From: Burkholderia seminalis DSM 23518 | GTDB taxonomy: Bacteria > Pseudomonadota > Gammaproteobacteria > Burkholderiales > Burkholderiaceae | Direction of reading: 5' to 3' | DNA: 64,000 nucleotides | NCBI RefSeq assembly: GCF_902832885.1 | Contig: NZ_CADFDK010000005.1 | Span: 124,001-188,000, forward strand | Notes under the pieces: model-generated | The model's input: the letters and a program-made list of their open reading frames with translations, nothing else | Told to the model about the DNA's origin: nothing | Databases searched by the model: none | Shown here: positions 12,521 through 30,326 of the stretch, in pieces | How positions within the stretch are numbered: the first letter of the stretch is position 1 | Layout of the letters: each line of letters starts with the position of its first letter | Translations under genes and position numbers: made by a program

Positions 12521-13726
12521 ATGCCCGACACTTTCCCCACTCCGCCGGCAATACCTCCCACACTGATCGTTGTCCTGGGCATGCATCGTAGCGGGACGAG
12601 TGTCCTCACGCGCGCGATGGAAACGATCGGCGCCGACCTTGGCGAAAGACTCATGCCTCCCGCCGCAGGCAATAACGACAAGGGGTTTTTCGAGGACCTG
12701 GATATCAATCAAGTCAATATCGAAATCCTGCACGAAGCAGGATTCGATTGGGACACCATGGCTTCGATCGACTTGAGCTCGATCGACGAGCACCGCATGG
12801 ACCAACTCCGGGCCAATGCATCGCGCGTCTTGCGCACCAAATGCGACGGCAAGATCTTTGCACTGAAGGACCCGAGAATTGCCCGGCTGCCGCAGTTCTG
12901 GCAACCAATCTTCTCCGCCCTGCCGTCTCGCGTGGTCTACGCAATCGCCGTTCGCAATCCGATCAGCGTCGCACGCTCATTATCGAAACGCGACAATTTC
13001 GCCGAAGAAAAATCACACATCCTCTGGCTTGCCTACACGGTTTCCGCACTCGAAATGACTGCGAGTCACCCGCGTACGCTGATCGGTTACGACACGTTGC
13101 TGGACGCCCCACGCCAGGAACTGGCTCGCATCTCGTCCGAGTTGGGACTGCCTTTGATCGAATCCGCAATCGATTCATTCGAGAAAGAGTTCGTCGACGG
13201 CGGTCTTCGCCATACGAGATTTACCCGTCAGGATCTAGACTCGCTTCGCTCATCTCCCCGGCAAGTCCGGGAACTGTTCTCCGCGCTCGACGAGACCATC
13301 CGGAACAGACTTCCGTCCGATAACGCGATGCTCGACCAGGCGGTCGAGCGCGCGCGCCGCTACCTCACCGACGTCTCGCCGCTGTTGAAATACGAATGGG
13401 AACTCGATTGCCATTCGAAGACGCTGAACGCGGCGGTCGCATCCCTTAATGAATCGATCGCTTCGCTCAACGAGTCAGTCCGCGTATCGGAACACGAGCG
13501 GGATGTATTGTCCGACGAGCTGCGCATGGCAAACGTCGATCGTGCCGACGCATACAACCGGCTGGATGAAGCCGAAACCGAACTGTCCGCAACCCGATCG
13601 GCGGTCGCTGCGCTGGAATCGGACGTGGTCAGCATGCGTGAATTGAACGCAGAAATGTTGTCGTCGACGAGTTGGCGGATCACGGCGCCGTTGCGCGCCG
13701 TCAAGCAACGACTGACAAGACACTGA
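12521..13726 (+). CDS. Sulfotransferase-family protein with C-terminal coiled coil
   Basis: A 401-residue protein. Residues about 13-35 contain VLGMHRSGTSVLTRAM, the PAPS 5'-phosphosulfate loop, followed by FALKDPRI. The 3'-phosphate-binding strand is AIAVRNPISVARSL. The last 130 residues are charged and heptad-like, with a tandem SLNESIASLNES, and end in a SWRITAPLR motif often found at the ends of polysaccharide-modifying enzymes. It would move sulfate from PAPS to a glycan. The ATG at 12521 was chosen because the PAPS loop then sits near the N terminus, as is normal; the frame is open to 12284. It stands alone on the plus strand among minus-strand genes and has lower G+C, suggesting insertion by transfer. 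No PAPS-synthesis gene is in the window. Confidence 0.78.
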   Translation: MPDTFPTPPAIPPTLIVVLGMHRSGTSVLTRAMETIGADLGERLMPPAAGNNDKGFFEDLDINQVNIEILHEAGFDWDTMASIDLSSIDEHRMDQLRANASRVLRTKCDGKIFALKDPRIARLPQFWQPIFSALPSRVVYAIAVRNPISVARSLSKRDNFAEEKSHILWLAYTVSALEMTASHPRTLIGYDTLLDAPRQELARISSELGLPLIESAIDSFEKEFVDGGLRHTRFTRQDLDSLRSSPRQVRELFSALDETIRNRLPSDNAMLDQAVERARRYLTDVSPLLKYEWELDCHSKTLNAAVASLNESIASLNESVRVSEHERDVLSDELRMANVDRADAYNRLDEAETELSATRSAVAALESDVVSMRELNAEMLSSTSWRITAPLRAVKQRLTRH

Positions 13727-13858: not shown

Positions 13859-16800
13859 TTACCGGTTACCGGACTGCCCGGGCATTGCACCGAGGATTTC
13901 ATTGATTCGATCCGTCGCATGGTGACCAGCCGTGGTCAGAGACAGATTGACGAGCGCGCTTTCGCGGGCACGGGCGCCGAGCTCACGCGCCCATTCCTGA
14001 TTCTCGAACACCTTGCGCATCGCTTTCGCTGCCTCATCGACCGACGGCTCCGCCCAGTGGAGATTCGCATCGTACGGAGGAATCGGTCGCCCCAGTTTCA
14101 CCAGATCGTAGGGAACGAGAAGGCTGTTGCTGTCGTCCATGAAGTCCACGTTGCCCGAGTAGTTCGTCGCAATGACGGGTTTTCCCATCAGCATGGCTTC
14201 CGCCATCGTAAGCCCCAATCCCTCGCTTCTGTGCAGAGACACATACGCGTCGCACGCATCCATGAGCGACAGCACTTCGTCCGGTGAATACACTTGGTCG
14301 ATGATCTTGATCTTCACCCCCGACATCTCGGCCGCAAGCCGCAATTCCTTGATCTGGGCCGGATGACGATCGCCGAACGAAGTCTTCAGCACCAGACAGA
14401 CCGGATCGTCCGGCCCGAACGCCTTGCTGAATGCACGAATCAACCCCATCGGATTCTTGCGCTCCATGACGCTCATCATGTGGAACGTAAAGAGGAACGT
14501 ATATTCGCCGTCGTTCAGTCCGAAGTACGATCGATCCCGGCGCTGATACTGGCCAAGTTGCACCCCCGGGAAAATCGTCCTCACCGGTATGGCCAACCGT
14601 TCGCGCAACCCCTTGGCGACAAACTCGGTCGCAGTCCAGACTTCATCGATGCGCGCGGCTTGATCGAGCCAGCTGTCCGGTATCGAATCGAATTCCCAAT
14701 ACCAGTATGCGATCCGGTAGGTTCGTTGCGCGCGCTCGAGCAAATCGGATCGCCCGTATGCATCGTCGAAAAACGGCTCCGGCTGCGTGTGAATGATCGT
14801 GATGTCGAAATCTTCCGTACCGGAAAAATCGACGTGATGCGGATCATCCCTCTGATCGGTACGAAGATCGCGCAACGACGTCTGCATCTCGACCTCGCGC
14901 ATCCCCTTCACCAATGCTTCCGCCGAGACGCGCAGACCCGACGGATAGCAGAAGTGTGCGATCACGTTGACGCCGGGCTTCGCCAGCGAAGCGGCCACCG
15001 CATCGACTTCCTGCGATTCGCACCATGAGCGAACGTCGTGCGGCAATGCGGCTTCGTCCGTTCGCAGCCATTCGATCAGTGCTCGCGCATCGGCCGCGTC
15101 ACGCAGCACTGCGGGAAAACGATCGCGCCAGTCTTCACGGGCGTTGTATGCCGTTCGAATCTGCTCGGCAGGCGACAAGTCGATCGGCCAGGTCTCCGGC
15201 ACCACCCACGAGTCGTGGACCCTGTATGTTGCGGCAAACCATGCAGCAAATGCGGCACGCCCGAAAATCGTCAAGCCGTCCGGGTGGAGTCGTTGCCATG
15301 CCGGTGTAAAGCGATAGGCTTCCACAAGTTCACGAGCCGGCGCTTCTGACGCTTGCCAGAAGAGCCACCAGATTTGCTCGAGTTGAAGGTCCGCGTCGAC
15401 ACGCCCATGCTGGATGAACCACTCGAACAGATCCGTCTGCCCGACCGGCGTCAACCCGTGCGGCATCAGCGCCCGGACATCCTGACGGAACATGAAGAAC
15501 TGTCGCGCCGGCGCGCCAAAATCCTGCTCGAACAGTTGCCCGATCGCCGTGACGCCCGCATCCGTCAAGCCGAGGGCACGCCCTCCTCCTGCAAGCAGCC
15601 ATTGCGCAAACGCGCCGTTACGTCCGGCCGAAAGCGCCTGCGGGAAGCGGACACGAAGATCGGCCCGGCGTCGCAACAGATCCAGACACCAACGCGCTGC
15701 GCTCCAGATATCGGAAACCTTGTGAGCGGGTTGCGGGGGCCACACGACTTCGTCTCGCGCCAATCCTGCGATTTCCATGCAAATGCCTTCGTCGTCGAGA
15801 CGAAGCGCCCTCGCCGGCAACGGGAGCGATCCCGAGTCTCGAAGCTGCCGGTCGAGTTCCGCCCGTACGGAAATGCCATCCTGCAGACGCAGGGTCGGAA
15901 TGGCATGGCGACCATCCAGTTCGGGGTGAAGATACGGATCCTCGTCGATGCCCAAATGACGGATGTCGTCTGCCAGGCGCCGGATATCCTCGACCGGATT
16001 GCTGTTCCCTCTCGTCGCCCCTTCGTGATGCACAAGACAGGCGTACGGCGTATAGGCCGTACGATAGCCGGCACGCCATATCCGCATGCACAGCGCGACG
16101 TCGCTCATCGCAATCAGATACGATTCGTCGAATCCCCCAACCTCTTCGAAGGCGCTCCTGCGCACCATCTGGCAGGCGCCCATGATCGCAAGCCAGTTTC
16201 GCGGATGATCCGGCGAGCCGAATACATCCCATTCGATACCGCCGCCGCTCCGGTACATCAATGCGGCGAGGTGGATGCCGATCGACACGCCTGCATGCTG
16301 CAGTTCCAGCGACGGATAGATCAGCTTCGTACCCACGACACCGACGCCCGGACGCATCGCAAACCGGACGAGTTCCTGCAGCCAGTCGCTCTTGATGATC
16401 TCGATATCGTTATTGAGGAAAAGCAGAAACTCGCCACGCGCTCTCACCGCACCGAAATTGCATGCGGCCGAATAATTGAACTTGTTCCGGAAATGAACGA
16501 TTCGAACCTGCGGCTCGGATTTCAGCTGCTCGTAGTATGCGAGCGTCTCGGGTTCATCCGATCCCGTATCGACGACGATGACTTCCTTGTTCGGATAGTC
16601 GGTTGCATGCAGTAGCCCCTCCAGGCACATCCGGAGCAGCTCTGGCTTGTTCTTGGTGGGAATGACAATCGAAACCAGCGGCGCCTGCTCGATCTGCCAG
16701 GTGGCATGCTGAGTGCCGTTTGATTGGGTTTCAACGGTCACCGCACCGCTAACGCCGTGACGCTCCCAATATCGCTGGATGGCCGCGCGATGATCACCGG

Positions 16801-16948
16801 CTTCGATGGTGTCGGGTGCAGGTCGCTCCTGGCATGCGCCCGGCTTGCGATGGCACAGTACCTTCGGAACACGAACGATGTTCTGCGCAAGGTCACTGAC
16901 ACGCAGGTTGAGATCCCATTCGACAGCCGTCGCGGCAGCAACGTCCAC
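13859..16948 (-). CDS. C-terminal part of a split giant glycosyltransferase (second GT2 + GT4)
   Basis: This 1029-codon frame has no natural N terminus: it opens at a GTG inside a glycosyltransferase domain, in the -strand frame that continues the 16893-18794 gene once one G is removed at 16950-16956. It holds a second complete GT2 domain (SIVIPTKNKPELL, VVDTGSDEPETL, LFLNNDIE, then VGGFDESYLIAMSD). A middle region of about 350 residues is unassigned, and a C-terminal GT-B domain carries the EX7E motif SEGLGLTMAEAM and GKPVIATNYSGN. The intact fused protein would be 1644 residues (4935 coding bases). If the frameshift is genuine this part is translated only by slippage or from the weak GTG. 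Confidence 0.85.
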   Translation of the reverse strand: MDVAAATAVEWDLNLRVSDLAQNIVRVPKVLCHRKPGACQERPAPDTIEAGDHRAAIQRYWERHGVSGAVTVETQSNGTQHATWQIEQAPLVSIVIPTKNKPELLRMCLEGLLHATDYPNKEVIVVDTGSDEPETLAYYEQLKSEPQVRIVHFRNKFNYSAACNFGAVRARGEFLLFLNNDIEIIKSDWLQELVRFAMRPGVGVVGTKLIYPSLELQHAGVSIGIHLAALMYRSGGGIEWDVFGSPDHPRNWLAIMGACQMVRRSAFEEVGGFDESYLIAMSDVALCMRIWRAGYRTAYTPYACLVHHEGATRGNSNPVEDIRRLADDIRHLGIDEDPYLHPELDGRHAIPTLRLQDGISVRAELDRQLRDSGSLPLPARALRLDDEGICMEIAGLARDEVVWPPQPAHKVSDIWSAARWCLDLLRRRADLRVRFPQALSAGRNGAFAQWLLAGGGRALGLTDAGVTAIGQLFEQDFGAPARQFFMFRQDVRALMPHGLTPVGQTDLFEWFIQHGRVDADLQLEQIWWLFWQASEAPARELVEAYRFTPAWQRLHPDGLTIFGRAAFAAWFAATYRVHDSWVVPETWPIDLSPAEQIRTAYNAREDWRDRFPAVLRDAADARALIEWLRTDEAALPHDVRSWCESQEVDAVAASLAKPGVNVIAHFCYPSGLRVSAEALVKGMREVEMQTSLRDLRTDQRDDPHHVDFSGTEDFDITIIHTQPEPFFDDAYGRSDLLERAQRTYRIAYWYWEFDSIPDSWLDQAARIDEVWTATEFVAKGLRERLAIPVRTIFPGVQLGQYQRRDRSYFGLNDGEYTFLFTFHMMSVMERKNPMGLIRAFSKAFGPDDPVCLVLKTSFGDRHPAQIKELRLAAEMSGVKIKIIDQVYSPDEVLSLMDACDAYVSLHRSEGLGLTMAEAMLMGKPVIATNYSGNVDFMDDSNSLLVPYDLVKLGRPIPPYDANLHWAEPSVDEAAKAMRKVFENQEWARELGARARESALVNLSLTTAGHHATDRINEILGAMPGQSGNR

Positions 16949-18794
16949 GCCCCCCCGCCTGCGTCACCAACGCACGGCGAAGCAACGTCAACCGCCCGAA
17001 GTAGTTGAACGCATAGAGAAGATCAGGTGACCAGGTCGGCTTGAAGTACGGCCGCTCGCGCGTTTGAGATGCCGACTGCACGTCTTCGTCGCCATAGACG
17101 ATGTCTGCCTGCGGCGACTTCGCGAGTACTGAAACGACATCGTTCAGCGCACTAGGCGCCAGAATATCGCCACTATCCAGAACGGCGACGAACTTGCCCT
17201 TGGCGTGATCGAGACCCCTTGCCAGGTTTGCCGGCCGCCCTTGGGCCGCGCCTGACGCGGCAACAGCGATCACGCGCGAATCGGCACCCGTCCACTCTTC
17301 GACGAGTTTCAGCATCGCCGCATCGTTGTCAGCGTGAACAACGATGGCTTCCCAGTTTCGATACGATTGCGCGCGAATCGAACCAACGGTTCTCGACGCG
17401 CTCTCGATCGAATCGACATCGGCAAGCAAAAAGCTCACGAGCGGCCCATCAACCTTGATCCTGGCATCGGCGCTCGACCGGGTTTCGACTGTGCGAATCC
17501 ATTCCGCGTACCGCCCCGACGACGCGGCACCGGGAATACCGCTGTCTTGCAGGACTTCGACCTGATCACTCACGGCTTGCTGCTCGCGAAGAAGGGTAGC
17601 CCGCCGCTGCCGCAAGAACTCCAGCCGTGCCGGCATCCGCCACGGCGTGGCCAGCCACCACGCGGCCTTGGCTACCTGACGCGCGCGCCCCCGCGCAGAT
17701 GGAGGCATCATCGCCCCGATCCGGCGCGCCGGCGACGTCGCGCGCCAGAACATCGATTGCGTGACGGCTTGATACTGCTGCTCGACCAGTTCGGCCCGGT
17801 GGCTGGCCTGCTGTGCCATCACGTCGCGGCCGGAGAGCGCGGAACGCAATTCGGCAATCTGGTTTTCAGCATCCTTGTGCCGACGCTTGTGCTCGTGCTC
17901 CATCTCCGCCCGCCGGCTTTCCATCGCCGCTGCCTGGCGCATCAACTCCTTGTTCAGGCGTTCGAGCTCCTGGTACTTCGCTTCATGCTCCTTAAGTACC
18001 TTTTCCACCTCGGTCTGCCGCACAAACTCCACCGCATCGCGTTCCCGCTGCTCCGCGTCCACGACCTGGGCGGTCAAGGTCTCAACCTGACCAGCCAGTT
18101 CGGCCGTCCTTGCAGGCACGAAATCGTCAAAGACGTTGGGCGGATACTTGAACGCGTCGATGAGCTCAGATCGTTCGCCGGCTACGTAGAACCGGTTGAG
18201 ACCGTCCGAATAGACATGCACGTAGTTCGCACCCAGAAGAATGCTCTCCCACTCCTGATGGGATTCCTTCTGGGTTAGCGGCAGCGTTGCCTCCACCACG
18301 ACGATCCACGGCCGGTTGCGTTTCCAGTCGTTGCCGGCCAGCACCGCGCGCTCAGCCCCTTCGACATCGACTTTCAGAAAATGAACCTCTCGCCCAGCAC
18401 TGACGTGCTCTCGCCAGATGTTGTCGAGGGTCGTCAGCGCAACGTCCTGAACATTCTCGCTCCACCCTGCCGCGACATGTTCACCGGCAATCTGGCCGTC
18501 GAGCGTCGACAATCCAGTGTCTTGAAACAAATGGATACGCCCCGTACCTGCGCTATCACCCACCGCGACCCGAAGATTGATATCGCGAGGACGCCGGCTT
18601 TCGAGTCGAGCAAAATAGACGGGATTGGGTTCGACATTGATGCCACTCCACCCCATCTCACTGAACGCTCGAGTCACCGAATGCTCGTCGGGAGACCATG
18701 CGCCAACGTCGATGTAAAAACCGGCCATCACATGCTGCAGCGCGCGATGCAGCATGACGTCTTCGAAATTTTGCGCGTAGGAAACAAGAGGCAT
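16893..18794 (-). CDS. FkbM methyltransferase-coiled coil-GT2 protein, truncated by frameshift
   Basis: N-terminal part (633 codons as read) of the giant protein. Residues about 1-200 are a FkbM-type SAM methyltransferase, with FYIDVGAWSPDEHSVT and FLKVDVEGAERAVLAG. Residues about 235-345 form a charged coiled coil ending near SMFWRATSPARR. From about 430 on, a YAEWIR module leads into the first half of a GT2 domain, with DSGDI and DIVYGDEDVQSAS. Reading passes a run of seven G (16950-16956 on the plus strand, seven C) and turns into a short out-of-frame tail that ends in a stop at 16893. Removing one G restores QAGGVDVAAATAVEWDLNLRV, a sensible GT2 continuation. It is the last gene of the rml-wzm-wzt operon and probably both methylates and extends the glycan. 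Confidence 0.87.
   Translation of the reverse strand: MPLVSYAQNFEDVMLHRALQHVMAGFYIDVGAWSPDEHSVTRAFSEMGWSGINVEPNPVYFARLESRRPRDINLRVAVGDSAGTGRIHLFQDTGLSTLDGQIAGEHVAAGWSENVQDVALTTLDNIWREHVSAGREVHFLKVDVEGAERAVLAGNDWKRNRPWIVVVEATLPLTQKESHQEWESILLGANYVHVYSDGLNRFYVAGERSELIDAFKYPPNVFDDFVPARTAELAGQVETLTAQVVDAEQRERDAVEFVRQTEVEKVLKEHEAKYQELERLNKELMRQAAAMESRRAEMEHEHKRRHKDAENQIAELRSALSGRDVMAQQASHRAELVEQQYQAVTQSMFWRATSPARRIGAMMPPSARGRARQVAKAAWWLATPWRMPARLEFLRQRRATLLREQQAVSDQVEVLQDSGIPGAASSGRYAEWIRTVETRSSADARIKVDGPLVSFLLADVDSIESASRTVGSIRAQSYRNWEAIVVHADNDAAMLKLVEEWTGADSRVIAVAASGAAQGRPANLARGLDHAKGKFVAVLDSGDILAPSALNDVVSVLAKSPQADIVYGDEDVQSASQTRERPYFKPTWSPDLLYAFNYFGRLTLLRRALVTQAGGRGRCCRDGCRMGSQPACQ
16950..16956 (-). 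repeat. Homopolymeric G7 tract at the frameshift
   Basis: Seven G on the coding strand, context CAGGC then G7 inside the alternating GT2 coding region. Six G would join the two halves in one frame. The tract is either a sequencing/assembly error, a fixed mutation or a slippage site for phase variation. Confidence 0.85.
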
Positions 18795-18934: not shown

Positions 18935-19825
18935 TCATGGATGTTCGAGCATCCATGCAAGCGTGTTACGAAGCGGTATCGCGTGAGTCGAACCGATCGC
19001 ATGTTCGAGCGCCCGGCAATTTCCGACGAGCTTGTGGACCTCGTTCGCACGCACGAACTGCGGATTCACCTTCACCTCCAGTTCGTGCCCGGATAGTTCC
19101 TGCACTGTCGCCAAGACGTCCTGCAGCGAATACCCGACGCCTGAACAGACGTTGAACGTCCGTCCAGCGAAGTCGCCTTCGATCAACTTCCGATACGCCG
19201 CGACCACCATGCGCACGTCCGAGAAATCCCGTACGACATTCAGATTTCCCAACTCGATGCGCACCGCGCGCTCGCTGAAATGCCGAACGATCTTGGGCAG
19301 AAGGAACCGCTCGTCCTGACCCACACCCGTGTAATTGAACGGCCGCACGACGACGATCGGAAGTTTGTCCTGCCACGTGTGTGCGACCATTTCCATCGCC
19401 AGCTTGCTGATCGCGTAATCGTTTGCGGGTGCCGGCGCAGTGGTTTCATCGATGACTTCCCGGTCGGAATTGCCATAGACGTTGGCACTGCTTGCCAACA
19501 ACACGGCTTGCGGCCGGCATGCCGCGCGAGTCAGCGCGTCAAGCAGGTTGCGCGTCCCGACTACATTGGTCTGGTAGATCGCACCGACGTCGCCGTGCTG
19601 AACGAACGCAATAGCCGCCAGATGCACGACGGCATCCGGCTTTTCGTCGGACAGCACACGAACCAGCGCGTCGAGATCAAGCAGATCGCACACGTGCGTT
19701 CGCCACGGAGCACCGGAAATCGGCTTGTGAACGATCCCGCAGACCTCGTGACCCGAGCGGATCAGTTCCTCCGCCATATAGCGGCCGGTAAATCCGTCCA
19801 GGCCCGTTACGAAGACTTTTGCCAT
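18935..19825 (-). CDS. rmd: GDP-6-deoxy-D-mannose (GDP-D-rhamnose) reductase-like
   Basis: A 296-residue extended short-chain dehydrogenase. FVTGLDGFTGRYM is the dinucleotide site, SSANVYGN holds the catalytic Ser region and YAISKLAME gives the YxxxK pair. RPFNYTGVGQDERFLLPK matches the Rmd/RfbD-type GDP-sugar reductases. It reduces the 4-keto-6-deoxy product of Gmd to GDP-D-rhamnose. The gene is immediately downstream of gmd with only 4 bases between them, the arrangement expected for a GDP-D-rhamnose pathway. Other 4-keto-sugar reductases (for example for talose) are possible, so the exact epimer is inferred. A 140-base gap follows before the FkbM-type gene. Confidence 0.85.
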   Translation of the reverse strand: MAKVFVTGLDGFTGRYMAEELIRSGHEVCGIVHKPISGAPWRTHVCDLLDLDALVRVLSDEKPDAVVHLAAIAFVQHGDVGAIYQTNVVGTRNLLDALTRAACRPQAVLLASSANVYGNSDREVIDETTAPAPANDYAISKLAMEMVAHTWQDKLPIVVVRPFNYTGVGQDERFLLPKIVRHFSERAVRIELGNLNVVRDFSDVRMVVAAYRKLIEGDFAGRTFNVCSGVGYSLQDVLATVQELSGHELEVKVNPQFVRANEVHKLVGNCRALEHAIGSTHAIPLRNTLAWMLEHP

Positions 19826-19829
19826 GGCC

Positions 19830-20864
19830 TTAGAACGAGAAGCCTGCTTCGTTCCGACGAATGTCGGCCTCGACCATCATCTGGCAAAGCTGCTCGAGCG
19901 TCGTCTTCGGCACCCAACCGAGTTCCTTGCTCGCTTTCTCGGGGTTGCCAATCAGCAGATCGACTTCGGCGGGCCGGTAGAACTTAGGGCTGACCTTGAC
20001 CACGGCGTTGCCGGTTCGGGTATCGACGCCCGTCTCGTTCTCGCCAACACCTTGCCATGCGAGTTCGATGCCTGCCGCCTGTGCCGCCATCGACACGAAA
20101 TCCCGTACCGTCTCGGTCCGGTTCGTCGCCAGCACGTAGGTATCGGGGCGTTCCGCCTGCAGCATGCGCCACATGCCTTCAACGTATTCCTTCGCATAAC
20201 CCCAGTCACGCTTGGCGTCGAGGTTGCCGAGCTCCAGCACATCGAGCTTGCCGAGACGGATCTTGGCAAGACTGTCCGTGATCTTCCGCGTCACGAACTC
20301 GCGGCCGCGCAGCGGCGATTCGTGGTTGAACAGGATGCCGCTGCAGCCGAAGATGTTGTAGCTCTCGCGATAGTTGATTGTCATCCAGTGCGCGTAAAGC
20401 TTTGCGACGCCGTACGGGCTACGCGGATAGAAAGGTGTAGTTTCAACCTGCGGAACGGCCTGTACCTTGCCGAACATTTCCGACGTGCTGGCCTGGTAGA
20501 AGCGGATCGCAGGATTGACCGTTCGAATTGCCTCGAGCAAGTTGAGCGCGCCAATCCCGGTAATCTCCGCGGTGGTCGCCGGCTGATCGAACGACACGCC
20601 GACGAAACTTTGAGCCGCCAGGTTGTAGACCTCCGTCGCCTGCGTCGCCTGAAGCAGACGGATGCTTGCGCCGAGATCGGTCAGATCGTATTCGACGAGG
20701 TGAAGATTGGGATGATTGCTGACGCCGAGTTCGTCGATTCGCCAAAAGTTCACCGAGCTGGTACGCCGGTAGGTGCCGTAAACGGTGTAGCCCTTCTCGA
20801 GAAGAAGCTCCGCAAGATACGCACCGTCCTGCCCCGTAATGCCAGTAATGATCGCAACAGTCAT
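19830..20864 (-). CDS. gmd: GDP-mannose 4,6-dehydratase
   Basis: A 344-residue enzyme converting GDP-D-mannose to GDP-4-keto-6-deoxy-D-mannose. The N terminus [18 protein letters not shown] is the family signature. YGTYRRTSS binds the NADP ribose-phosphate, ASTSEMFGK holds the catalytic Thr/Ser-Glu pair, and [15 protein letters not shown] gives the Yxxx[19 protein letters not shown] is the conserved tetramer/substrate loop. Length matches the family. It lies directly between manC (113 bases upstream) and rmd, so the three steps mannose-1-P to GDP-mannose to GDP-D-rhamnose are consecutive. Confidence 0.97.
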
Positions 20865-20977
20865 GTTCTTTCCAGTTTGTTCAGTGTGTTGAAGCTCCGA
20901 CCCGAATCGTCAATCGCGATCACGCCATGCGGGCGACCGATGCGACGCTGAGTCCAGGCCGGACGTTCCAATCGTGG

Positions 20978-22420
20978 TTACTTGCCGGTCGCAGCAACGA
21001 CATCCCGGCCGTAGTTGTCGTCGAGACGGACGATATCGTCTTCGCCAAGATACGAGCCCGATTGAACCTCGATCAGTTCAAGCGGAATCTTCCCCGGGTT
21101 CTGCAGCCGATGCGTCACGCCCAGCGGAATGTAGGTCGACTGATTCTCGCTCAGCAAAATGACCTGGTCGCCGTTGAAGACCCGCGCGGTACCGCGAACG
21201 ACGACCCAGTGTTCAGCCCGATGGTGATGCATCTGCAAGCTGAGTGACGAGCCCGGATTGACGATGATGCGCTTGACCTGAAAGCGTTCGCCCTGGTCGA
21301 TACTCTCGTATGAACCCCATGGCCGAATGACCTTCCGGTGCGTCACCGACTCGTGCCGCCCCGATGCACTGAGGCGCTCAACGATCTTCTTCACGCGCTC
21401 GGACTGATCGCGATGCGTGACGAGGACCGCGTCCGCCGTTTCGACGATGATCAAATCCTTGACGCCGATGGCCGTGACCATTCGATGATCGGCCCGGATA
21501 TAACTATCGGAAACGTCGTCGGTCAGCACATCACCCGACAGCGTATTGCCCGTATCGTCGGTATCCGAAATATCTGCAAGCGCGGCCCACGAGCCGATAT
21601 CGCTCCAGTTCAGGCCGGCTGCCGCGACCATCACCGCGTGGTCGGTTTTCTCCATCACCGCGTAGTCGATCGAGATGTTCGGGCATGCCTCGAATGCATC
21701 GGCGTCAAGTCGGACGAAATCCTCATCGCGCTTTGCCTGCTTGACCGATAGCGCAACCTGTTCGAGCACGGCCGGTTCGAATCGCTTGAGTTCGTCCAGA
21801 TACACCGACGCCTTCAGCATGAACATACCGCTGTTCCAGTAGTAACCGCCTTCCGACACGAAGCGCGCCGCCGTATCCGCATCCGGCTTCTCGACGAACG
21901 CATCGACACGAAACGCGTCGTCATGCGACGTCAATGCGTTGCCGCTGCGGATGTAGCCGTATCCGGTGTGCGGCTTGGTCGGCTCGATACCGAACGTGAC
22001 GAGATGCCCGCCGTTGGCGATAACGCGCGCCTTCTCGGCCAGATTTGCGAACACCGCCTCGCTCAGGATCACATGGTCGGACGGCAGCACGAGCAGCAAT
22101 GCATCCGGCGACTGCTCCATCGCGAGCAACGCCGCCGCCGCAACCGCGGGCGCAGTATTGCGCCCGACCGGCTCCAGGACGACCGCCGACGCAGTCACGT
22201 CGATGCTGCGCAACTGATCGGCCACGATGAAGCGTTGTTCCGCATTCGTGATCATGATCGGCGCTTCGACACCGGGCACGCCCTGCAGACGCAGCACGGT
22301 CTGCTGAACCAGCGTGTGTTCTCCGGCCAACTTGAGGTACTGCTTCGGATAACCACCCCGGGACAATGGCCAGAGACGGGTGCCGCTACCGCCGCACAGG
22401 ACTACAGGGAAGATGTTCAC
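20978..22420 (-). CDS. manC: Mannose-1-phosphate guanylyltransferase / mannose-6-phosphate isomerase
   Basis: A bifunctional 480-residue enzyme of the AlgA/WbpW type. The N-terminal nucleotidyltransferase domain has the pyrophosphorylase signature GGSGTRLWPLSRGGYPKQY (residues 10-28) and the mannose-binding FVEKPD. The C-terminal cupin isomerase domain has RPWGSYESID and the metal-site histidines in LQMHHHRAEHW. It makes mannose-6-P from fructose-6-P and GDP-mannose from mannose-1-P, with ManB at the left window edge providing the middle step. It precedes gmd on the same strand. A 98-base gap separates it from the GT2 gene upstream. Confidence 0.96.
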   Translation of the reverse strand: MNIFPVVLCGGSGTRLWPLSRGGYPKQYLKLAGEHTLVQQTVLRLQGVPGVEAPIMITNAEQRFIVADQLRSIDVTASAVVLEPVGRNTAPAVAAAALLAMEQSPDALLLVLPSDHVILSEAVFANLAEKARVIANGGHLVTFGIEPTKPHTGYGYIRSGNALTSHDDAFRVDAFVEKPDADTAARFVSEGGYYWNSGMFMLKASVYLDELKRFEPAVLEQVALSVKQAKRDEDFVRLDADAFEACPNISIDYAVMEKTDHAVMVAAAGLNWSDIGSWAALADISDTDDTGNTLSGDVLTDDVSDSYIRADHRMVTAIGVKDLIIVETADAVLVTHRDQSERVKKIVERLSASGRHESVTHRKVIRPWGSYESIDQGERFQVKRIIVNPGSSLSLQMHHHRAEHWVVVRGTARVFNGDQVILLSENQSTYIPLGVTHRLQNPGKIPLELIEVQSGSYLGEDDIVRLDDNYGRDVVAATGK

Positions 22421-22518: not shown

Positions 22519-24396
22519 TCAGACGAGCGCGCCCGCCCGTGACGGCCAGGCCAGACCGATATCCTCTTCGTTCAGCGTCAGATTTGGACTGTATGAGGAA
22601 TCATTCCGCAGCAGTTCTCCCCAGTGCTTTTGCATGTACTCGGTCTCGCGGTCGAATCGGGCCTGTTTGACGGGATCGTCCTCGTAACCACGCGTCGCCG
22701 ACTCATGGTGATACAGCTCCGCATACGGAGTCCAAACGTTGCGATAGCCGGCCTTTTTCAAGCGGAGACAAAAATCGATATCGTTGAACGCAACGCCCAG
22801 ATCCTGTTCGTTCATTCCCGCCACTTCACGATAGGCCGCCTTGCGCACGATCATGCATGCAGCGGTCACTGCGGAGAAGGCGCCGATCAGGCTGGCGCGA
22901 CCGAAGTACCCGAACGATCCGCGAGGAACGTGCTTGTGCACATGTCCCGCCACGCCGCCAAGCCCGAGCACCACGCCGGCATGCTGGACAGTGTCGTTCG
23001 GATAGAGCAGTTTCGCGCCCACCGCGCCGACGCCGGGTTGCAATGCAATGCTGACCATTTCCGTCAACCAATCGGGAGAAATCACCTCGATATCGTTGTT
23101 GACCAGTCCGATGACCTCACCGCTCGCAACCTCGACGGCCGCATTGCACAATGCCGCGAAATTGAACGGCCGATCGTCGCGCAACACCCGGAAACGCGTG
23201 TCATTCTCAAGCGACGCGAGGTAGTTCAGCGTCTCGGGATCGTCCGAACCGTTGTCAACGATGACGATTTCGTAGCTTCCGTACGTCGTCTTGCCAACGA
23301 TGCTCGCGACGCACTGCCGAATCAGGTTCAGCCCGTTGCGCGTCGGAATGATCAGGCTGACGAGCGGCACCGGATCCGGCATCGCATAACGCGCACGGTA
23401 GCCGTTTCCTGCGTACTCCGCCACACCGCGAACGCCCGTTCGCTCGAAGTGGTCGTTGAGTGCCCGCTCGCCGGCCACCACCGCGTAGGGCTTTGCGTCC
23501 GTTCCTGACGAGGTGCTTTCCGCGTGGACGCGCCAGTGATACAGCACCCTCGGAATATGATGAATTGCCGCAGCGCCTGCCCGGTCGACACAACGCAGGG
23601 CCAGATCATAGTCCTGGGACCCTTCATACCCTTCGCGGAAACCGCCGACCTCGTCGAGCAGGGCCTTTTGAAATACCCCCAGATGACTGAACATATTCTG
23701 CGAAAGGAACAGATCGGGATTCCAGTCACACTTGAAGTACGGTTCACGACGCTTGCCCGAGCCATCGATCTTGTCTTCATCAGAATAGATCATCCGAATC
23801 GACGGATCGCGCTCTATCGCATCCGCGACGCAATAGAGCGCGTGCTCCGGCAACAGGTCATCGTGATCGAACAGCGCGACCCACGTGCCCGCCACGAGTT
23901 CGAGCGCAGAATTCGATGCGGCCGAAATATGGCCGTTCTTCTGCCGGAACGCGACCTTGATCCGCGGGTCCTGGGAAGCATAACGTTCGAGCAGCGGGCG
24001 GATGGCCGGATTCGTCGACACGTCGTCGGCAATGCAGAGTTCCCAATGCGGATAAAGTTGTCCGCGGATGGACTCAATTGCCTCCGCAAGCCACGCGGGA
24101 TCGGGATTGTAGACGGGCATCACTACCGAAATCAGCGGCGGATTCGAGAAGCCAGCGATTCGCTCGCGAATGGCCACCCGGGTTGCATCGTCAACCTGAT
24201 CGTAACGGCGCACCCATTCTGCGTAGAGAACCGGGTCGATGACACCCGGAGCGCCCGCGCGCAACCATGCAATCCGGCTCTTGACGCCGGCGACCCCTTC
24301 CCGGCGGAAGATGCCGTAAGCCTTGCGCACGACCAGTCGCAATCCACCGTCACCTGCCACCCGGTTCACGAACGAACGTGCTTTGCGCAACTTCAT
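22519..24396 (-). CDS. Two-domain glycosyltransferase family 2
   Basis: A 625-residue cytoplasmic protein with two tandem GT2 domains. The first begins PPLISVVMPVYNPD near residue 92 and has FDHDDLLPEHAL as its metal loop. The second begins PLVSLIIPTRNGL near residue 350, with VDNGSDDPETLNYL and LVNNDIEVISPDWL. A YAEWVRRYD module precedes the first domain, the same kind of module found before the GT2 region of the FkbM fusion gene in this operon, so the two are related. Such proteins often build the repeat backbone of D-rhamnan or mannan-like chains. The start ATG lies after an untranslated gap of 42 bases from wzt. Donor is unknown; GDP-D-rhamnose is the local candidate. Confidence 0.9.
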   Translation of the reverse strand: MKLRKARSFVNRVAGDGGLRLVVRKAYGIFRREGVAGVKSRIAWLRAGAPGVIDPVLYAEWVRRYDQVDDATRVAIRERIAGFSNPPLISVVMPVYNPDPAWLAEAIESIRGQLYPHWELCIADDVSTNPAIRPLLERYASQDPRIKVAFRQKNGHISAASNSALELVAGTWVALFDHDDLLPEHALYCVADAIERDPSIRMIYSDEDKIDGSGKRREPYFKCDWNPDLFLSQNMFSHLGVFQKALLDEVGGFREGYEGSQDYDLALRCVDRAGAAAIHHIPRVLYHWRVHAESTSSGTDAKPYAVVAGERALNDHFERTGVRGVAEYAGNGYRARYAMPDPVPLVSLIIPTRNGLNLIRQCVASIVGKTTYGSYEIVIVDNGSDDPETLNYLASLENDTRFRVLRDDRPFNFAALCNAAVEVASGEVIGLVNNDIEVISPDWLTEMVSIALQPGVGAVGAKLLYPNDTVQHAGVVLGLGGVAGHVHKHVPRGSFGYFGRASLIGAFSAVTAACMIVRKAAYREVAGMNEQDLGVAFNDIDFCLRLKKAGYRNVWTPYAELYHHESATRGYEDDPVKQARFDRETEYMQKHWGELLRNDSSYSPNLTLNEEDIGLAWPSRAGALV

Positions 24397-24438: not shown

Positions 24439-25191
24439 TCACTCCCCCACCGACGCAGCATATTGCGATACGACGTCGTCGACCTCTCCGAAAGCACGCA
24501 CTCGCCCGCGCTCCATCCAGAGCGCCTTGTTGCACACCTTGCGGATTTCCTTGTTCGAGTGCATCGCGAGCACAACGATCTCGGCACGGTCGTGCAGTTC
24601 CTCGAGACGGGCCTCGGCCTTGTGCATGAACGACGCATCGCCCACGCCCATGACTTCGTCGAGCAGCAGGATCTCGGCATCGACCGCCGTCGAAACGGCA
24701 AAGGCGAGCCGCATCTTCATGCCGCTCGAATAGGTACGGATAGGTAGATCGAGGTAGTCGCCCAATTCGCTGAATTCGGCAATATCGCTCTGCTTTCTGC
24801 GAATCTCCGCGTCGGTCATGCCGAGCAGCAGGCCGCGCAACCGGATGTTCTGCATGCCGGTCGAGTTCTCGTCCATACCGAGACTGATGTCGAGCAGCGG
24901 CACGGCCTTGCCTACTCGCGACAGCGAGCCGGCCGTCGGAGGATAAATGCCGGCCATCGCGCGCAGCAGCGTCGACTTTCCCGCGCCGTTGTGGCCGATG
25001 AGCCCCACGCGATCGCCGCGATCGAAGCGGAAACTCAGATCGTCGAGTGCACGGACGACGATGACGCCGTCATTACCCTCCGCAATCCGGTTACGTCGCC
25101 CCATGCGAAGCACCTGCTTCTTCAGCGAGCGGCCCTGGACGTCATAGATCGGCAGATCCAGCGTCACGTTCTTCAGTTCAATGTGTGCCAT
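24439..25191 (-). CDS. wzt: O-polysaccharide ABC exporter, ATP-binding subunit
   Basis: A 250-residue ATPase: Walker A GHNGAGKST, ABC signature YSSGMKMRLAFAVS, Walker B ILLLDEVMGVGD and the switch histidine in VVLAMHSN. With Wzm it exports complete undecaprenyl-linked polysaccharide. It is the short form: it stops right after the nucleotide-binding domain and lacks the C-terminal carbohydrate-binding domain that recognises capped chains in E. coli O8/O9a. Export therefore should not depend on a terminal modification read by Wzt. The gene follows wzm with a 10-base gap. Confidence 0.95.
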   Translation of the reverse strand: MAHIELKNVTLDLPIYDVQGRSLKKQVLRMGRRNRIAEGNDGVIVVRALDDLSFRFDRGDRVGLIGHNGAGKSTLLRAMAGIYPPTAGSLSRVGKAVPLLDISLGMDENSTGMQNIRLRGLLLGMTDAEIRRKQSDIAEFSELGDYLDLPIRTYSSGMKMRLAFAVSTAVDAEILLLDEVMGVGDASFMHKAEARLEELHDRAEIVVLAMHSNKEIRKVCNKALWMERGRVRAFGEVDDVVSQYAASVGE

Positions 25192-25201
25192 GTCGCTCCC
25201 T

Positions 25202-25984
25202 TCAGACCCAGTACGGAAGACGTTTCAGATAACGACCGGTCATGAGCAGTGCGATCGGCCATCCAACGATCGCCATGCCGATGGTCACTCCCCACGTCAG
25301 CGCGCTCGGCATTTGTCCGATCAGCGGACCGCGAACGACATCGATCAGGTACGCAAGCGGATTCCATTCGACGATGAACGAAAAGCGATTCAGCGCGTCG
25401 GGACGAAAGATGATGGGCGTCACATAGAATGCGACCTGAAGCAGCGCACCAATGATTTGCGGAAGGTCGCGAAAACGTGCCGACAACAGACTTGTCAGCA
25501 TGGCGATCCACATCGCATTCAGCACATACAGAAGCAGCCCAGGAATGAACATCGGCAGCGTCTCCCAGCTCTTGACGCCAAAGATCATCAGAAGACCGAT
25601 GACGATCACGAAGTTGTGCGCCAGCACGATCAGATTCCGCCATACGACTTGCAGAATGTAGATCAGCTTCGGCGTGGGCACCTGGCGAATGTAGGCGCCG
25701 CTGCTGATATACGCGATGCTCCCTTCCTGGATCGTCTGCGAGAAAAGCCCCCACAGCACGATACTCGATGCGAGAAACGGCAGGTACTCGTTCATCTTTT
25801 GTCCGAACAACGTACCGTAGACCACGCCAAGCGACGTAATCATCACGCCCATGCTGATCGTGAGCCAGAACGGTCCGACTCTCGAGCGGGCATAGCGCTG
25901 CCGGATTTCGAGCCAGCCAAGCAGCGTCCACAACCGCCACGAGGCAATGCTCTGTTTGAGGTCAGCAAGTGAAAGAGTCAGCAT
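25202..25984 (-). CDS. wzm: O-polysaccharide ABC exporter, permease subunit
   Basis: A 260-residue ABC-2-type permease with about six membrane helices and the characteristic N-terminal amphipathic stretch including RYARSRVGPFWLTISMG. The conserved YVTPIIF...NPLAYLIDVVRGPLIG run lies in the C-terminal half. It forms the membrane channel with Wzt for lipid-linked O-polysaccharide. It lies between the GT2 gene (46 bases upstream) and wzt. Length and topology match Wzm proteins from rhamnose-rich O antigens. Confidence 0.95.
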   Translation of the reverse strand: MLTLSLADLKQSIASWRLWTLLGWLEIRQRYARSRVGPFWLTISMGVMITSLGVVYGTLFGQKMNEYLPFLASSIVLWGLFSQTIQEGSIAYISSGAYIRQVPTPKLIYILQVVWRNLIVLAHNFVIVIGLLMIFGVKSWETLPMFIPGLLLYVLNAMWIAMLTSLLSARFRDLPQIIGALLQVAFYVTPIIFRPDALNRFSFIVEWNPLAYLIDVVRGPLIGQMPSALTWGVTIGMAIVGWPIALLMTGRYLKRLPYWV

Positions 25985-26030: not shown

Positions 26031-26939
26031 TCAAAGCGCCCCGGTACGACCGGTCAGTCCGTGCCAGATCCCGAGCAACGACAGCCGCAGGTGCGCGAAG
26101 CGAGGCTGCATGAACAGCGCATAGATCGCGAGCCGGACCGGCATCTTGACGAGTTCCGTCGACTTCCAGCTCCACGGAACATAAGCGCGCCGGATCAGCG
26201 CGATCGCGTTGCGGAACAGATAGTAATGCCGAACCGGGCCGTGTCCGGGATAGCTTCGCCCGAACACCTTGACCGGTTCGCCGCCCAATTCGTGCGTCAG
26301 CCGCAACGCTGGCGCGCCGAGCACCGAATATCCCATCGAGCGAGCGCGGACACACCATTCCAGATCGACGAAGTCGATGAACAACGAGTCGTCCATCGGA
26401 CCGATGTCGCGCCACACATCGAGATTCACGCACGACCCCGACGTGATCAGAAAGTCGACTTCGACCGGCTGCACACCCTTCGGCTGAACCCGGCGCAGCT
26501 TCACGTACCCGAATCGAACGAACGGCGCGACACCGCCCAGCCGTGCGTCCTCGTACGCGGGGCCAACGAGTGCCACGCGACGATTGCGCATGCGCTCGGT
26601 CGCCATTGTCCGAGGCAGTTCGATCAGCAGTTCGTCCGATGGCTCACTATCCTGATCGAACAGCAATACCGACGTACAGTTCGCCGCAGCCAGGCGTTCG
26701 ATACCCTGGTTGAGCGCAGTCGCGATCCCAAGATTGGCGCCGTTCGCGACATAGTCGATACGCGCGTCGAGCCCGAGCGCGCCCGGCGCACTGATGCTCT
26801 CCGTGTTGTCCACCACCACGCAGGGCCATACTTGGGCGAGCCGATTCGCGCGAGCCACGCAACCGCTATCTGGTCGATAGAACACGATGACGACACCGGC
26901 CCGCTCCTGAACCGCGGAATTCTGATTCAAGTTACTCAC
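26031..26939 (-). CDS. Glycosyltransferase family 2, rhamnosyltransferase-like
   Basis: A 302-residue GT2 enzyme of the rhamnosyltransferase kind. It has a first strand GVVIVFYRPDSG, the loop VVVDNTES, a metal-site equivalent LLFDQDSEPSDELL, and LITSGSCVNLDVWRDIG followed by DFVDLEWCVRAR. The FDQDSEP motif is particularly common in dTDP-rhamnosyltransferases. Its start overlaps the rmlD stop by eight bases (26932-26939), so dTDP-L-rhamnose synthesis and use are translationally linked, which supports L-rhamnose as donor. The linkage formed is not predictable. Confidence 0.9.
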   Translation of the reverse strand: MSNLNQNSAVQERAGVVIVFYRPDSGCVARANRLAQVWPCVVVDNTESISAPGALGLDARIDYVANGANLGIATALNQGIERLAAANCTSVLLFDQDSEPSDELLIELPRTMATERMRNRRVALVGPAYEDARLGGVAPFVRFGYVKLRRVQPKGVQPVEVDFLITSGSCVNLDVWRDIGPMDDSLFIDFVDLEWCVRARSMGYSVLGAPALRLTHELGGEPVKVFGRSYPGHGPVRHYYLFRNAIALIRRAYVPWSWKSTELVKMPVRLAIYALFMQPRFAHLRLSLLGIWHGLTGRTGAL

Positions 26940-27831
26940 TCAGGCACAGCTTCAATGCATCGGCCCAGTCCGGCAACCGCAGCCCGAATGCTTCGGTCAG
27001 CTTGTCGTGCGACAGTCGCGAATTGGACGGACGCTTGGCGGGAACCGGGTAGTCGCTCGCCGGAATCGGCAACACCTTCGGCGCACGCTCGCCCATCGCG
27101 TGGGCGAAGATTGCCTCGGCAAACCCGTGCCACGACGTCGCGCCTGCCGACGTGAAGTGATAAACGCCGGAACGCTGCGCCCACCAGCCCGCGTCATCGG
27201 CCGCCAACGCCTGCGTGACGATGTGCGAGGTCGCGGTGGCGATCGTCTTCGACCACGTCGGCGCGCCAACCTGATCCGCGACGACGCGCAGTTCCGGACG
27301 TTCGCTGCCGAGCTTCAGCATCGTCAGCAGGAAGTTCTTGCCGCGACGGCCGTACACCCAGCTCGTCCGCAGAATCAAGTGCGCGCAACCCGTCGCCGCG
27401 ATGGCCTGCTCGCCCTCAAGCTTGGTCAGCCCGTACACGTTCTGCGGATTGGTCGCATCCGTTTCGACGTAGGCACCGTCTTTGGTCCCGTCGAACACGT
27501 AGTCGGTCGAATAATGAATCAGCGCTGCGCCGAGACGCGCCGCCTCCTCCGCAAAAGCGCGCGGAACTTCGGCATTCAGCCGGCGCGCGGCGTCAACGTC
27601 CGTCTCGGCCTTGTCGACCGCCGTATACGCGGCCGGATTCACGATGATCGACGGCTTCAGCCCGCGTACGACACTGCGCACCCGATCGAGATCGGACAGG
27701 TCGAGCATCGAGCGGTCGCACCCCACCACACGGCCGAGACCTTGCAGCGAGCGCAGCAGTTCGAACCCGACCTGGCCATTCACACCCGTCACGAGGATCG
27801 TCGGCTCTGGAGTCACACCCACCTCACGCAT
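26932..27831 (-). CDS. rmlD: dTDP-4-dehydrorhamnose reductase
   Basis: A 299-residue NADPH-dependent reductase making dTDP-L-rhamnose in the last step of the pathway. LVTGVNGQVGFELL is the dinucleotide site, YSTDYVFDGTKDGAYVE holds the catalytic Thr/Asp region and YGLTKLEGEQ supplies the catalytic Tyr and Lys. Length is that of RfbD/RmlD. The gene overlaps rmlC by eight bases upstream and the GT2 gene by eight bases downstream, so translation is coupled. Confidence 0.96.
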   Translation of the reverse strand: MREVGVTPEPTILVTGVNGQVGFELLRSLQGLGRVVGCDRSMLDLSDLDRVRSVVRGLKPSIIVNPAAYTAVDKAETDVDAARRLNAEVPRAFAEEAARLGAALIHYSTDYVFDGTKDGAYVETDATNPQNVYGLTKLEGEQAIAATGCAHLILRTSWVYGRRGKNFLLTMLKLGSERPELRVVADQVGAPTWSKTIATATSHIVTQALAADDAGWWAQRSGVYHFTSAGATSWHGFAEAIFAHAMGERAPKVLPIPASDYPVPAKRPSNSRLSHDKLTEAFGLRLPDWADALKLCLSE

Positions 27832-28375
27832 AAACTTCGGCTTCGCTCAAACGCTTGCCGGCTGCGTCCTTCGCCGCCAGCAGCGGCTCGAAATCGATCG
27901 GCCACTCGATTCCGATCTCCGGGTCGTTCCACACGATGCTGCGCTCGTGTTCCGGAAACCAGTAGTCGGTCGTCTTGTAGAGGAACTGCGCGGCCTCCGA
28001 CAGCACGACGAAGCCGTGTGCGAAACCGGGCGGCACCCACAGCTGCCGATGGTTGTCGTTCGACAGGACAACCCCTACCCACTTGCCGAAGTTCGGCGAA
28101 TCCTTGCGAATGTCGACGGCCACGTCGAACACTTCGCCCTCGACCACGCGAACGAGCTTGCCCTGCGCGTGCTGGATCTGATAGTGCAGCCCGCGCAGCA
28201 CGCCCTTCGACGAGCGTGAGTGGTTGTCCTGCACGAATTCGACGCCGGGTGCGACCTGCTCGGCGAATTCCTTCCCGTTGAAGCTTTCGTAGAAGAACCC
28301 GCGCGCGTCGCCGAACACCTTCGGCTCGATGATCTTGACTTCCGGCAGTGCCGTCGCCGTTACTTGGATGGCCAT
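27824..28375 (-). CDS. rmlC: dTDP-4-dehydrorhamnose 3,5-epimerase
   Basis: A 183-residue cupin-fold epimerase. Family motifs are [34 protein letters not shown] (catalytic His in the last stretch), and [14 protein letters not shown]. The ATG at 28373-28375 begins [15 protein letters not shown], giving the standard length. A longer open frame runs upstream but is inside rmlA. The start overlaps the 3' end of rmlA by 16 bases and the stop overlaps rmlD by 8 bases. Confidence 0.96.
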
Positions 28376-29253
28376 GCGACTTGATCCGTAAGAATGTTCT
28401 TGAGGTATTGACCGTATGCGTTCTTCGCGAGCGGCTGCGCCAGCTTCAGCACTTGCTCCGCATCGATCCAGTTGCGGCGATAGGCGATTTCTTCCGGACA
28501 TGCGACGACGAGACCCTGCCGCTTCTGCAACGTCGCGATGAAGCTGGCCGCCTCGATCAGCGAATCGTGCGTGCCGGTATCGAGCCACGCATAACCGCGC
28601 CCCATGATCTCGACGTTCAGCGCACCGCTGTCGAGATAGCGCGAGTTGACATCGGTAATTTCCAGCTCGCCGCGCGGCGATGGCTTGATGTCGGCCGCGA
28701 TGTCGCATACGCGGTTGTCGTAGAAATACAGGCCCGTCACTGCGTAGTTCGAACGCGGCTTCGCCGGCTTTTCCTCGATCGACAGCGCACGGAACGACTT
28801 GTCGAATTCGACGACGCCGTAACGCTCCGGGTCATGCACGTGATACGCAAACACGGTCGCGCCAGTTTCCTGTGCATGCGCGCGCTCCAGCTGCTTCGCC
28901 AGATCGTGCCCGTAGAAGATGTTGTCGCCGAGAATCAGCGCCGACGGATCGTTGCCGACGAACGCCTTGCCGATGATGAACGCCTGCGCGAGACCGTCGG
29001 GCGACGGCTGCACCGCGTACTGGATGTTCATCCCCCACTGGCTGCCGTCGCCGAGCATCGCTTCGAAGCGCGGCGTGTCCTGCGGCGTGGAGATGATCAA
29101 TACATCGCGAATGCCCGCGACCATCAACGTCGACAGCGGGTAGTAGATCATCGGCTTGTCGTACACCGGCAGCAGCTGCTTGGAGACGACGTGCGTGATC
29201 GGATACAGCCGCGTGCCGGAACCACCGGCGAGAATGATGCCTTTACGTGCCAT
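28360..29253 (-). CDS. rmlA: Glucose-1-phosphate thymidylyltransferase
   Basis: A 297-residue enzyme making dTDP-glucose from dTTP and glucose-1-P, the first committed and feedback-controlled step of dTDP-rhamnose synthesis. [14 protein letters not shown] is the nucleotidyltransferase signature near the N terminus, followed by [18 protein letters not shown], then the [10 protein letters not shown] segment that contacts the sugar. The ATG at 29251-29253 has an excellent ribosome site (AGGAGAG) just upstream. A longer frame beyond it is inside rmlB. It lies 11 bases after rmlB. Confidence 0.97.
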
Positions 29254-29264
29254 CGCTTCTCTCC

Positions 29265-30326
29265 TCAAGTGCGTTTCGCGTAGTTCGTCTCGACCCACTT
29301 GCGGTACTCGCCCGATGCGACCTCGTCGACCCAGACCTGATTGTCGAGATACCAGTCGACCGTCTTCGCCAGGCCAGTCTCGAACGTTTCCGCGGGCTTC
29401 CAGCCGAGCTCGCGTTCGAGCTTGCGCGCATCGATCGCGTAGCGGCGATCGTGGCCGGGCCGGTCCGTCACATAGGTGATCTGGTCGCGGTACGAACCCG
29501 CTGCCTTCGGGCGCGCCTTGTCGAGCAGGTCGCACAGCGTATGCACGACTTCGAGGTTCTTCTTCTCGTTCCAGCCGCCGACGTTGTACGTCTCGCCGGG
29601 CACACCGCGCGCGAGCACTTCGCGAATCGCGCTGCAGTGATCGCCGACGTACAGCCAGTCGCGCACGTTCTGGCCGTCGCCATACACTGGCAGCGGCTTG
29701 CCCGCGAGCGCGTTCGCGATCATCAGCGGAATCAGCTTCTCGGGGAACTGATACGGGCCGTAGTTGTTCGAACAGTTCGTCGTCAGCACCGGCAGGCCGT
29801 ACGTATGATGGTATGCACGCACCAGATGGTCGGAACCCGCCTTCGTCGCCGAATACGGGCTGTTCGGCGCGTACGGCGTCGTTTCGGAGAATTGCGGGTC
29901 GGTGGCCGACAGCGAACCGAACACCTCGTCGGTCGACACGTGCAGGAAGCGGAACGCAGCCTTGTCGGCGTCGTTCAGTCCGTTCCAGTACTGGCGGGTC
30001 GCCTCGAGCAGCGTGAACGTGCCGACGACGTTGGTCTGCACGAAGTCCGCGGGGCCGTGGATCGAGCGATCGACGTGGCTTTCCGCGGCGAAGTGCAGTA
30101 CCGCGCGGGGCTTGTGCTCGGCGAGGAGCGCATCGAGTGCGTCACGGTCGCAGATGTCGACGCGCGCAAACACGTGCTTCGGGTTCCCGTCCAGCGACTG
30201 CAGCGTGCGCAGGTTCCCTGCGTACGTCAGCTTGTCAACGTTGAGCACGGCTTCGTCGGATGCGCGCAGCCAGTCGAGTACAAAATTGGCACCGATAAAA
30301 CCCGCGCCGCCCGTAACCAGGATCAT
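29265..30326 (-). CDS. rmlB: dTDP-glucose 4,6-dehydratase
   Basis: A 353-residue extended short-chain dehydratase. [15 protein letters not shown] is the NAD site, [12 protein letters not shown] and STDEVFGSL are family signatures with the catalytic Thr-Asp-Glu, and [15 protein letters not shown] supplies the YxxxK. Length is normal. It is the first gene of the long minus-strand O-antigen operon that continues down to 13.9 kb. The A+T-rich gap upstream carries a perfect -10 hexamer oriented toward this gene. Confidence 0.97.

What the first reader, a model, noticed from the sequence alone, without database searches (positions are those of the whole stretch)
16950..16956. G7 tract splits a three-domain methyltransferase-GT2-GT4 protein
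Seen: reading from 18794, a FkbM methyltransferase-coiled coil-GT2 frame runs into seven G and goes out of frame, ending at 16893. The rest of the GT2 domain plus a GT4 domain continues in another frame from 16948 to 13859. Removing one G gives exactly 4935 coding bases (1644 residues) and a sensible join. Mononucleotide tracts in surface-glycan genes are classical phase-variation sites, and with the end of the operon here, on/off switching would change O-antigen methylation or extension.
Basis: partly seen in the sequence, partly recalled or inferred. Interest (0 to 1): 0.85.

Follow-up and report, generated by a model that had tools for sequence, protein, structure and literature searches.

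The report
Split sugar-polymer gene, likely sequencing error
A large bacterial gene for building surface sugar chains is cut in two at a run of seven Gs, but the same genome shows unrelated genes cut at similar G/C runs, so this is most likely a sequencing or assembly error and not an on/off switch.

Summary
Seven C (+ strand) lie at 16950-16956. The FkbM methyltransferase-GT2 frame (18794-16893) leaves frame there and the rest continues in another frame to 13859. The pieces belong to one gene: 20 orthologue rows (19 distinct loci) are open across this point, and three intact orthologues carry FkbM, two GT2 and one GT4 domain. Phase variation is not supported. No orthologue row has a G run above four there, and runs of seven are not unusually frequent. 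The same assembly changes frame at G/C runs of 7-9 in eight other genes of unrelated function, among them xylose isomerase, IlvE, a ROK-family gene, FixL/FixJ-like and CobN/chelatase ATPase. It also holds C12 and C25 runs. mutS and mutL are full length. Best reading: consensus error at G/C runs in a Burkholderia draft genome. Second: a private slippage mutation. A true switch is unlikely but cannot be excluded without reads. A different break in the same gene in sister genome G026 is one of nine G026-private shifts in 400 kb, so it is weak support.

The parts
16950..16956 (-). G7 run (C7 on +) at the frame break
16893..18794 (-). Piece 1: FkbM methyltransferase, helical Glu/Ala/Arg-rich linker, first part of the first GT2 domain
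13859..16948 (-). Piece 2: rest of the first GT2, complete second GT2, GT4 domain
18935..22420 (-). SDR reductase, GDP-mannose 4,6-dehydratase and mannose-1-phosphate guanylyltransferase genes (GDP-6-deoxysugar supply)
22519..24396 (-). Protein with two GT2 domains
24439..25984 (-). Wzt-like and Wzm-like ABC exporter genes (best NCBIfam matches below the curated cut-offs)
26031..30326 (-). Weak GT2-like gene, then rmlD-, rmlC-, rmlA- and rmlB-type genes

Best explanation
The gene codes a methyltransferase-GT2-GT2-GT4 enzyme of an ABC-exporter O-antigen cluster, and its frame break at the G7 run is most likely a consensus error in this draft assembly. Shown: the pieces form one frame in relatives; the run is private to this genome among those compared; the same assembly changes frame at G/C runs of 7-9 in many unrelated genes. 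Inferred: the cause is technical, over-called or mis-resolved G/C runs (dark-signal poly-G or PCR slippage in GC-rich DNA; recalled, from no call). In the living strain the protein would then be one polypeptide, a chain-building enzyme whose N-terminal methyltransferase may cap and size the chain, as the analogous K. pneumoniae O7 protein does.
For: 20 of 20 orthologue rows open across the point, none with a G run above four. Of 7 G000-private frame shifts in 400 kb, 4 are at G/C runs of 7 or more; 0 of 3 in G041 and 0 of 9 in G026 are. Outside that stretch: ROK-family gene 155 aa against 346-435 aa in 14 of 14 matching Burkholderia; FixL/FixJ-like fused, separate in 15 of 15; CobN/ATPase fused, separate in 7 of 7; ICMT-like 190 against 235 aa in the one other match; xylose isomerase and IlvE split between consecutive profile positions at C8 and C9. 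C11, C12 and C25 runs. mutS and mutL full length. Both pieces under purifying selection, dN/dS 0.10 and 0.07 against G041.
Against: Reads were not seen. Exact G8 counts do not single out this genome (24; others 1-28). Several coding runs of 7 read in frame: three near N-termini by relatives, L153, L171 and L175 by eye. The C25 run lies in an open frame. In the 400-kb stretch no G000-private shift falls at a run of 5 or 6, and true slippage also grows with run length. The tests outside contig 5 were on runs I had picked.
Confidence: 0.62

Rival explanations
1. A real, private slippage mutation: the run arose by substitutions in this lineage and slipped, so the strain has lost the fused enzyme. 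No switching is implied; a mutator strain would explain the other breaks.
For: Frame changes sit at G/C runs in many genes. Indels in homopolymers rise with run length and with loss of mismatch repair (Vibrio, PMC5854121, passages). O-antigen loss by mutation occurs in B. dolosa (PMC12287342, passages).
Against: mutS and mutL are full length (missense not excluded). A split IlvE and xylose isomerase would be costly to a free-living strain, unless paralogues serve (not tested). No decay in either piece.
Confidence: 0.25
2. Phase variation: the G run slips back and forth in the population, switching the fused enzyme and so O-antigen capping, length or presence.
For: G run at a frame break in a surface-glycan gene; both pieces still under purifying selection, as expected of a switching gene but also of an error or a recent mutation.
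Against: Run absent in 20 of 20 orthologue rows; only seven G; similar breaks in metabolic and regulatory genes. Two searches of an incomplete library listed no paper on homopolymer phase variation of Burkholderia O-antigen.
Confidence: 0.08
3. Recoding or two working genes: the full protein is made by ribosomal or transcriptional slippage on the run, or piece 2 is translated from the GTG beside it.
For: A GTG directly follows the run. Loci whose match covers only about residues 347-395 to 1018-1026 of piece 2 exist in Variovorax and relatives.
Against: The split falls inside a GT2 domain; orthologues are single frames with no such run; the usual -1 ribosomal slip would not lead into the second ORF (direct reading); the G run touches the GTG, leaving no normal spacing for a ribosome-binding site.
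Confidence: 0.05

Closest known systems
Klebsiella pneumoniae O7 ORF6 (PMC11231755; abstract and passages)
   Same: N-terminal methyltransferase, middle helical region, C-terminal GT modules in one protein; cluster with wzm, wzt and rhamnose supply
   Different: O7 has a methyltransferase-kinase and two GT2; here an FkbM domain, two GT2 and a GT4; coiled coil not shown here; homology between the methyltransferases not tested
WbdD (E. coli O9a, K. pneumoniae O3/O5; passages in PMC11231755)
   Same: Methyl-type terminator logic in ABC-exporter O-antigen assembly
   Different: WbdD is separate from the polymerase
Simple-repeat contingency loci (review PMC11868660, passages)
   Same: Homopolymer at a frame break in a surface-structure gene
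   Different: Run short, private to one genome, with similar breaks in unrelated genes
B. dolosa wbaD stop codon and its reversions (PMC12287342, passages)
   Same: O-antigen glycosyltransferase off or on by mutation in Burkholderia
   Different: Point mutations found in sequenced isolates, not a repeat; that study discarded variants around homopolymers

Membership tests
Simple-repeat phase-variable locus | Repeat at the point of frame change | tested here: met
Simple-repeat phase-variable locus | Repeat kept (with varying length) among relatives | tested here: not met
   0 of 20 orthologue rows have a G run above four; only other species were available
Simple-repeat phase-variable locus | Repeat longer or commoner than composition predicts | tested here: not met
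   3 against 4.0 expected in the window; 87 exact G7 runs in the genome
Simple-repeat phase-variable locus | Frame changes at such repeats concentrated in surface or modification genes | tested here: not met
   ilvE, xylA, cobN, fixL/J-like and others affected
Simple-repeat phase-variable locus | Reversible length change within a clone | not testable with these tools
   no reads or further strains of the species held
Methyltransferase-ruler-GT terminator/polymerase of ABC-exporter O antigens | Methyltransferase and GT modules in one protein | tested here: met
   in three intact orthologues; split in the window
Methyltransferase-ruler-GT terminator/polymerase of ABC-exporter O antigens | Coiled-coil ruler between them | tested here: inconclusive
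   residues 226-345 are rich in Glu, Ala, Arg and poor in Pro/Gly, but the heptad signal is weak (0.50 against 0.34)
Methyltransferase-ruler-GT terminator/polymerase of ABC-exporter O antigens | Wzm/Wzt exporter in the cluster | tested here: met
   matches below the curated cut-offs of the galactan models
Methyltransferase-ruler-GT terminator/polymerase of ABC-exporter O antigens | Methylated chain end | not testable with these tools
   needs glycan chemistry

The most novel reading that the evidence does not exclude
A G7 run newly arisen in one Burkholderia lineage switches a fused O-antigen terminator-polymerase between a full methyltransferase-GT2-GT2-GT4 protein and a methyltransferase fragment, so that chain capping, length or presence varies within a clone; with the other runs it would be a first sign of genome-wide poly-G contingency in a GC-rich Burkholderia.
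Probability: 0.07. Interest if true: 0.6.

Novelty: not a real feature. Interest (0 to 1): 0.13.

Why it matters
Taken at face value, the split would be annotated as a phase-variable O-antigen gene or a pseudogene. That this assembly changes frame at G/C runs in unrelated genes warns against reading homopolymer frameshifts in it as biology. The intact gene in relatives is a probable terminator-polymerase fusion worth study in its own right.

Tried and rejected
Two genes: rejected, orthologue rows are single frames. Support from the G026 break in the GT4 part: set aside, since G026 has 9 private shifts in 400 kb. Mutator by loss of mutS or mutL: no support.

Frame shifts in 400 kb: one search lists 18 in 236 G041 genes and 25 in 262 G026 genes compared with G000. 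Many lie near ORF starts that my simple gene caller may have set too far upstream; a recount keeping only places seen from both relatives leaves 7 private to G000: 4 at runs of 7 or more (one, segment 41761, in an ORF of doubtful coding status, not counted among my nine genes) and 3 not at long runs (234664, 108554, 105552; coding status there not settled). A further one near 388925, seen from the G000 ORF against both relatives, is not at a long run and is unexplained. Three of the runs aligned that differ from relatives are outside clear coding sequence.

A codon-usage scan without relatives had low power: it called the present locus unclear. Of five G000 tracts outside contig 5 that rated in-frame or break I tested four by relatives (L142, L144, L149, L151; all four shifted) and judged L162 a gene boundary; L163, flagged, was not followed. 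Of 8 tracts rated in-frame, six were only read by eye (L153 and L175 look truly in frame, L171 N-terminal, L158, L168, L180 spurious). All six G006 breaks looked like gene boundaries. Of 38 places with runs of 8 or more, 6 were in contig 5 and 20 more were fetched; I listed fragments for seven and named two by profile. Structure prediction was not run. Searches gave nothing used beyond PMC5854121.

Full report
Where it is. The window is bases 124001-188000 of contig 5 of a 7.97-Mb, 55-contig genome, G000. Its genus is inferred to be Burkholderia: same-genus genome G006 has a contig of the same length (133,823) with the same match as the named record of B. catarinensis strain 89. No call names the species.

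What is there. Seven C on the + strand lie at 16950-16956. On the - strand, piece 1 (18794-16893, 633 aa) holds an FkbM methyltransferase domain and the first part of a GT2 domain. Piece 2 (16948-13859, 1029 aa) holds the end of that GT2, a complete second GT2 and a GT4. The gene ends a - strand group with rml-type genes, Wzm- and Wzt-like exporter genes, a protein with two GT2 domains, a mannose-1-phosphate guanylyltransferase, GDP-mannose dehydratase and an SDR reductase. I infer an ABC-exporter O-antigen locus with L-rhamnose and probably D-rhamnose supply.

One gene, not two. Each piece was searched alone. In 20 orthologue rows (19 distinct loci: B. catarinensis held twice, sister genomes G041 and G026, Variovorax, Acetobacter, Belnapia, Rhodopila) the frame is open across the junction; in 17 rows piece 1 also matches up to it. 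In 19 of 20 rows the place codes Gly-Gly with mixed codons, and in no row is there a G run above four. Three intact orthologues of 1644-1675 aa carry FkbM, two GT2 and one GT4. Both pieces evolve under purifying selection (dN/dS 0.10 and 0.07 against G041; six neighbours 0.03-0.10).

Is the run special? In the window there are 3 G/C runs of 7 or more against 4.0 expected, while runs of 6 or more are rarer than expected (4 against 18.3). Exact G7 runs: G000 87, G041 52, G026 24, G006 66. Exact G8 runs: G000 24, the 64 others of the genus 1-28. In the matched 400-kb stretches G000 has 16 G/C runs of 7 or more, 6 of them longer than 7; G041 has 6 and G026 2, none longer than 7. So the run is ordinary by genome count; its placing at a frame break is what needs explaining.

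The same assembly changes frame elsewhere. I compared 400 kb of contig 5 with 400 kb of G041 and of G026. Keeping only net frame shifts seen from both other genomes, 7 are private to G000, 3 to G041 and 9 to G026. Of these, 4 of 7, 0 of 3 and 0 of 9 lie at G/C runs of 7 or more. The four are the present gene (C7), an aminotransferase-like gene (C8), a lipoprotein-like gene (C9; both named by reading the protein) and a doubtful ORF (C7). Three other coding runs there, near N-termini, are in frame.

Outside contig 5 I tested picked runs. A ROK-family gene has a 155-aa frame against 346-435 aa in 14 of 14 matching Burkholderia of 15 searched. FixL- and FixJ-like parts form one 1132-aa frame but lie in two frames in 15 of 15 Burkholderia. 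CobN and a chelatase ATPase form one 1629-aa frame but lie in two in 7 of 7. An ICMT-like protein is cut to 190 aa against 235 aa in G041, the one other match among 8 genomes. At longer runs, xylose isomerase is split between profile positions 187 and 191 (C8) and branched-chain aminotransferase IlvE between 234 and 238 (C9), pieces searched apart and judged against family profiles only. Runs of C11, C12 and C25 occur too; the last lies at the start of a permease-like frame that stays open. Against this, L153, L171 and L175 hold G7 runs that read in frame by eye. In 40 G006 regions the relatives-free reading found no convincing in-gene break, at low power.

Reading. Nine genes of unrelated function with frame changes at G/C runs of 7-9 in one draft genome, with mutS and mutL full length (886 and 685 aa), is best explained by consensus errors at such runs. 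True slippage in a mutable strain is the main rival. A locus-specific switch predicts a run kept among relatives and breaks concentrated in surface genes; neither is seen. Sister genome G026 has its own break in the GT4 part of the same gene, one of its 9 private shifts in the stretch.

What the intact gene probably does. In K. pneumoniae O7 one protein joins a methyltransferase, a coiled coil and two GT2 modules; in such systems the terminator sits at the far end of a coiled-coil ruler that sets chain length (PMC11231755, abstract and passages). The intact Burkholderia protein has a like order with an FkbM domain and an added GT4. I infer a chain-building enzyme that may cap by methylation. 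The ruler is not shown: the heptad signal is weak. By sequence, solved structures matched only GT modules, best GalT1 and chondroitin synthase.

Literature. O-antigen switching by successive point mutations is known in B. dolosa (PMC12287342, passages). In the passages seen, a phase-variation review mentions Burkholderia only for an IS-bounded element (PMC11868660). Two searches for homopolymer phase variation of Burkholderia O-antigen listed 8 and 5 papers, none with that in its title or shown abstract; the library is partial.

Noticed in passing
L254, about 984-1008 (G000:C7, near 307060): A run of 25 C at the start of a sugar-permease-like frame, which stays open through it; artefact or a very mutable tract.
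   Followed up: partly
L240 near 1001 and L248 near 1000 (G000): Xylose isomerase and branched-chain aminotransferase genes each lie in two frames at a C8 and a C9 run.
   Followed up: partly
L076, near 16235 (G026): The same glycosyltransferase gene has a different frame break in its GT4 part in sister genome G026.
   Followed up: partly
L018-L032, L034, L035: Matches to the GT4-side part alone (about residues 347-395 to 1018-1026 of piece 2), so this module seems to occur apart from the full fusion.
   Followed up: no
window 12284-13726 (+): A 480-aa ORF facing the split gene with no Pfam match; its sequence recalls sulfotransferases (by eye).
   Followed up: no
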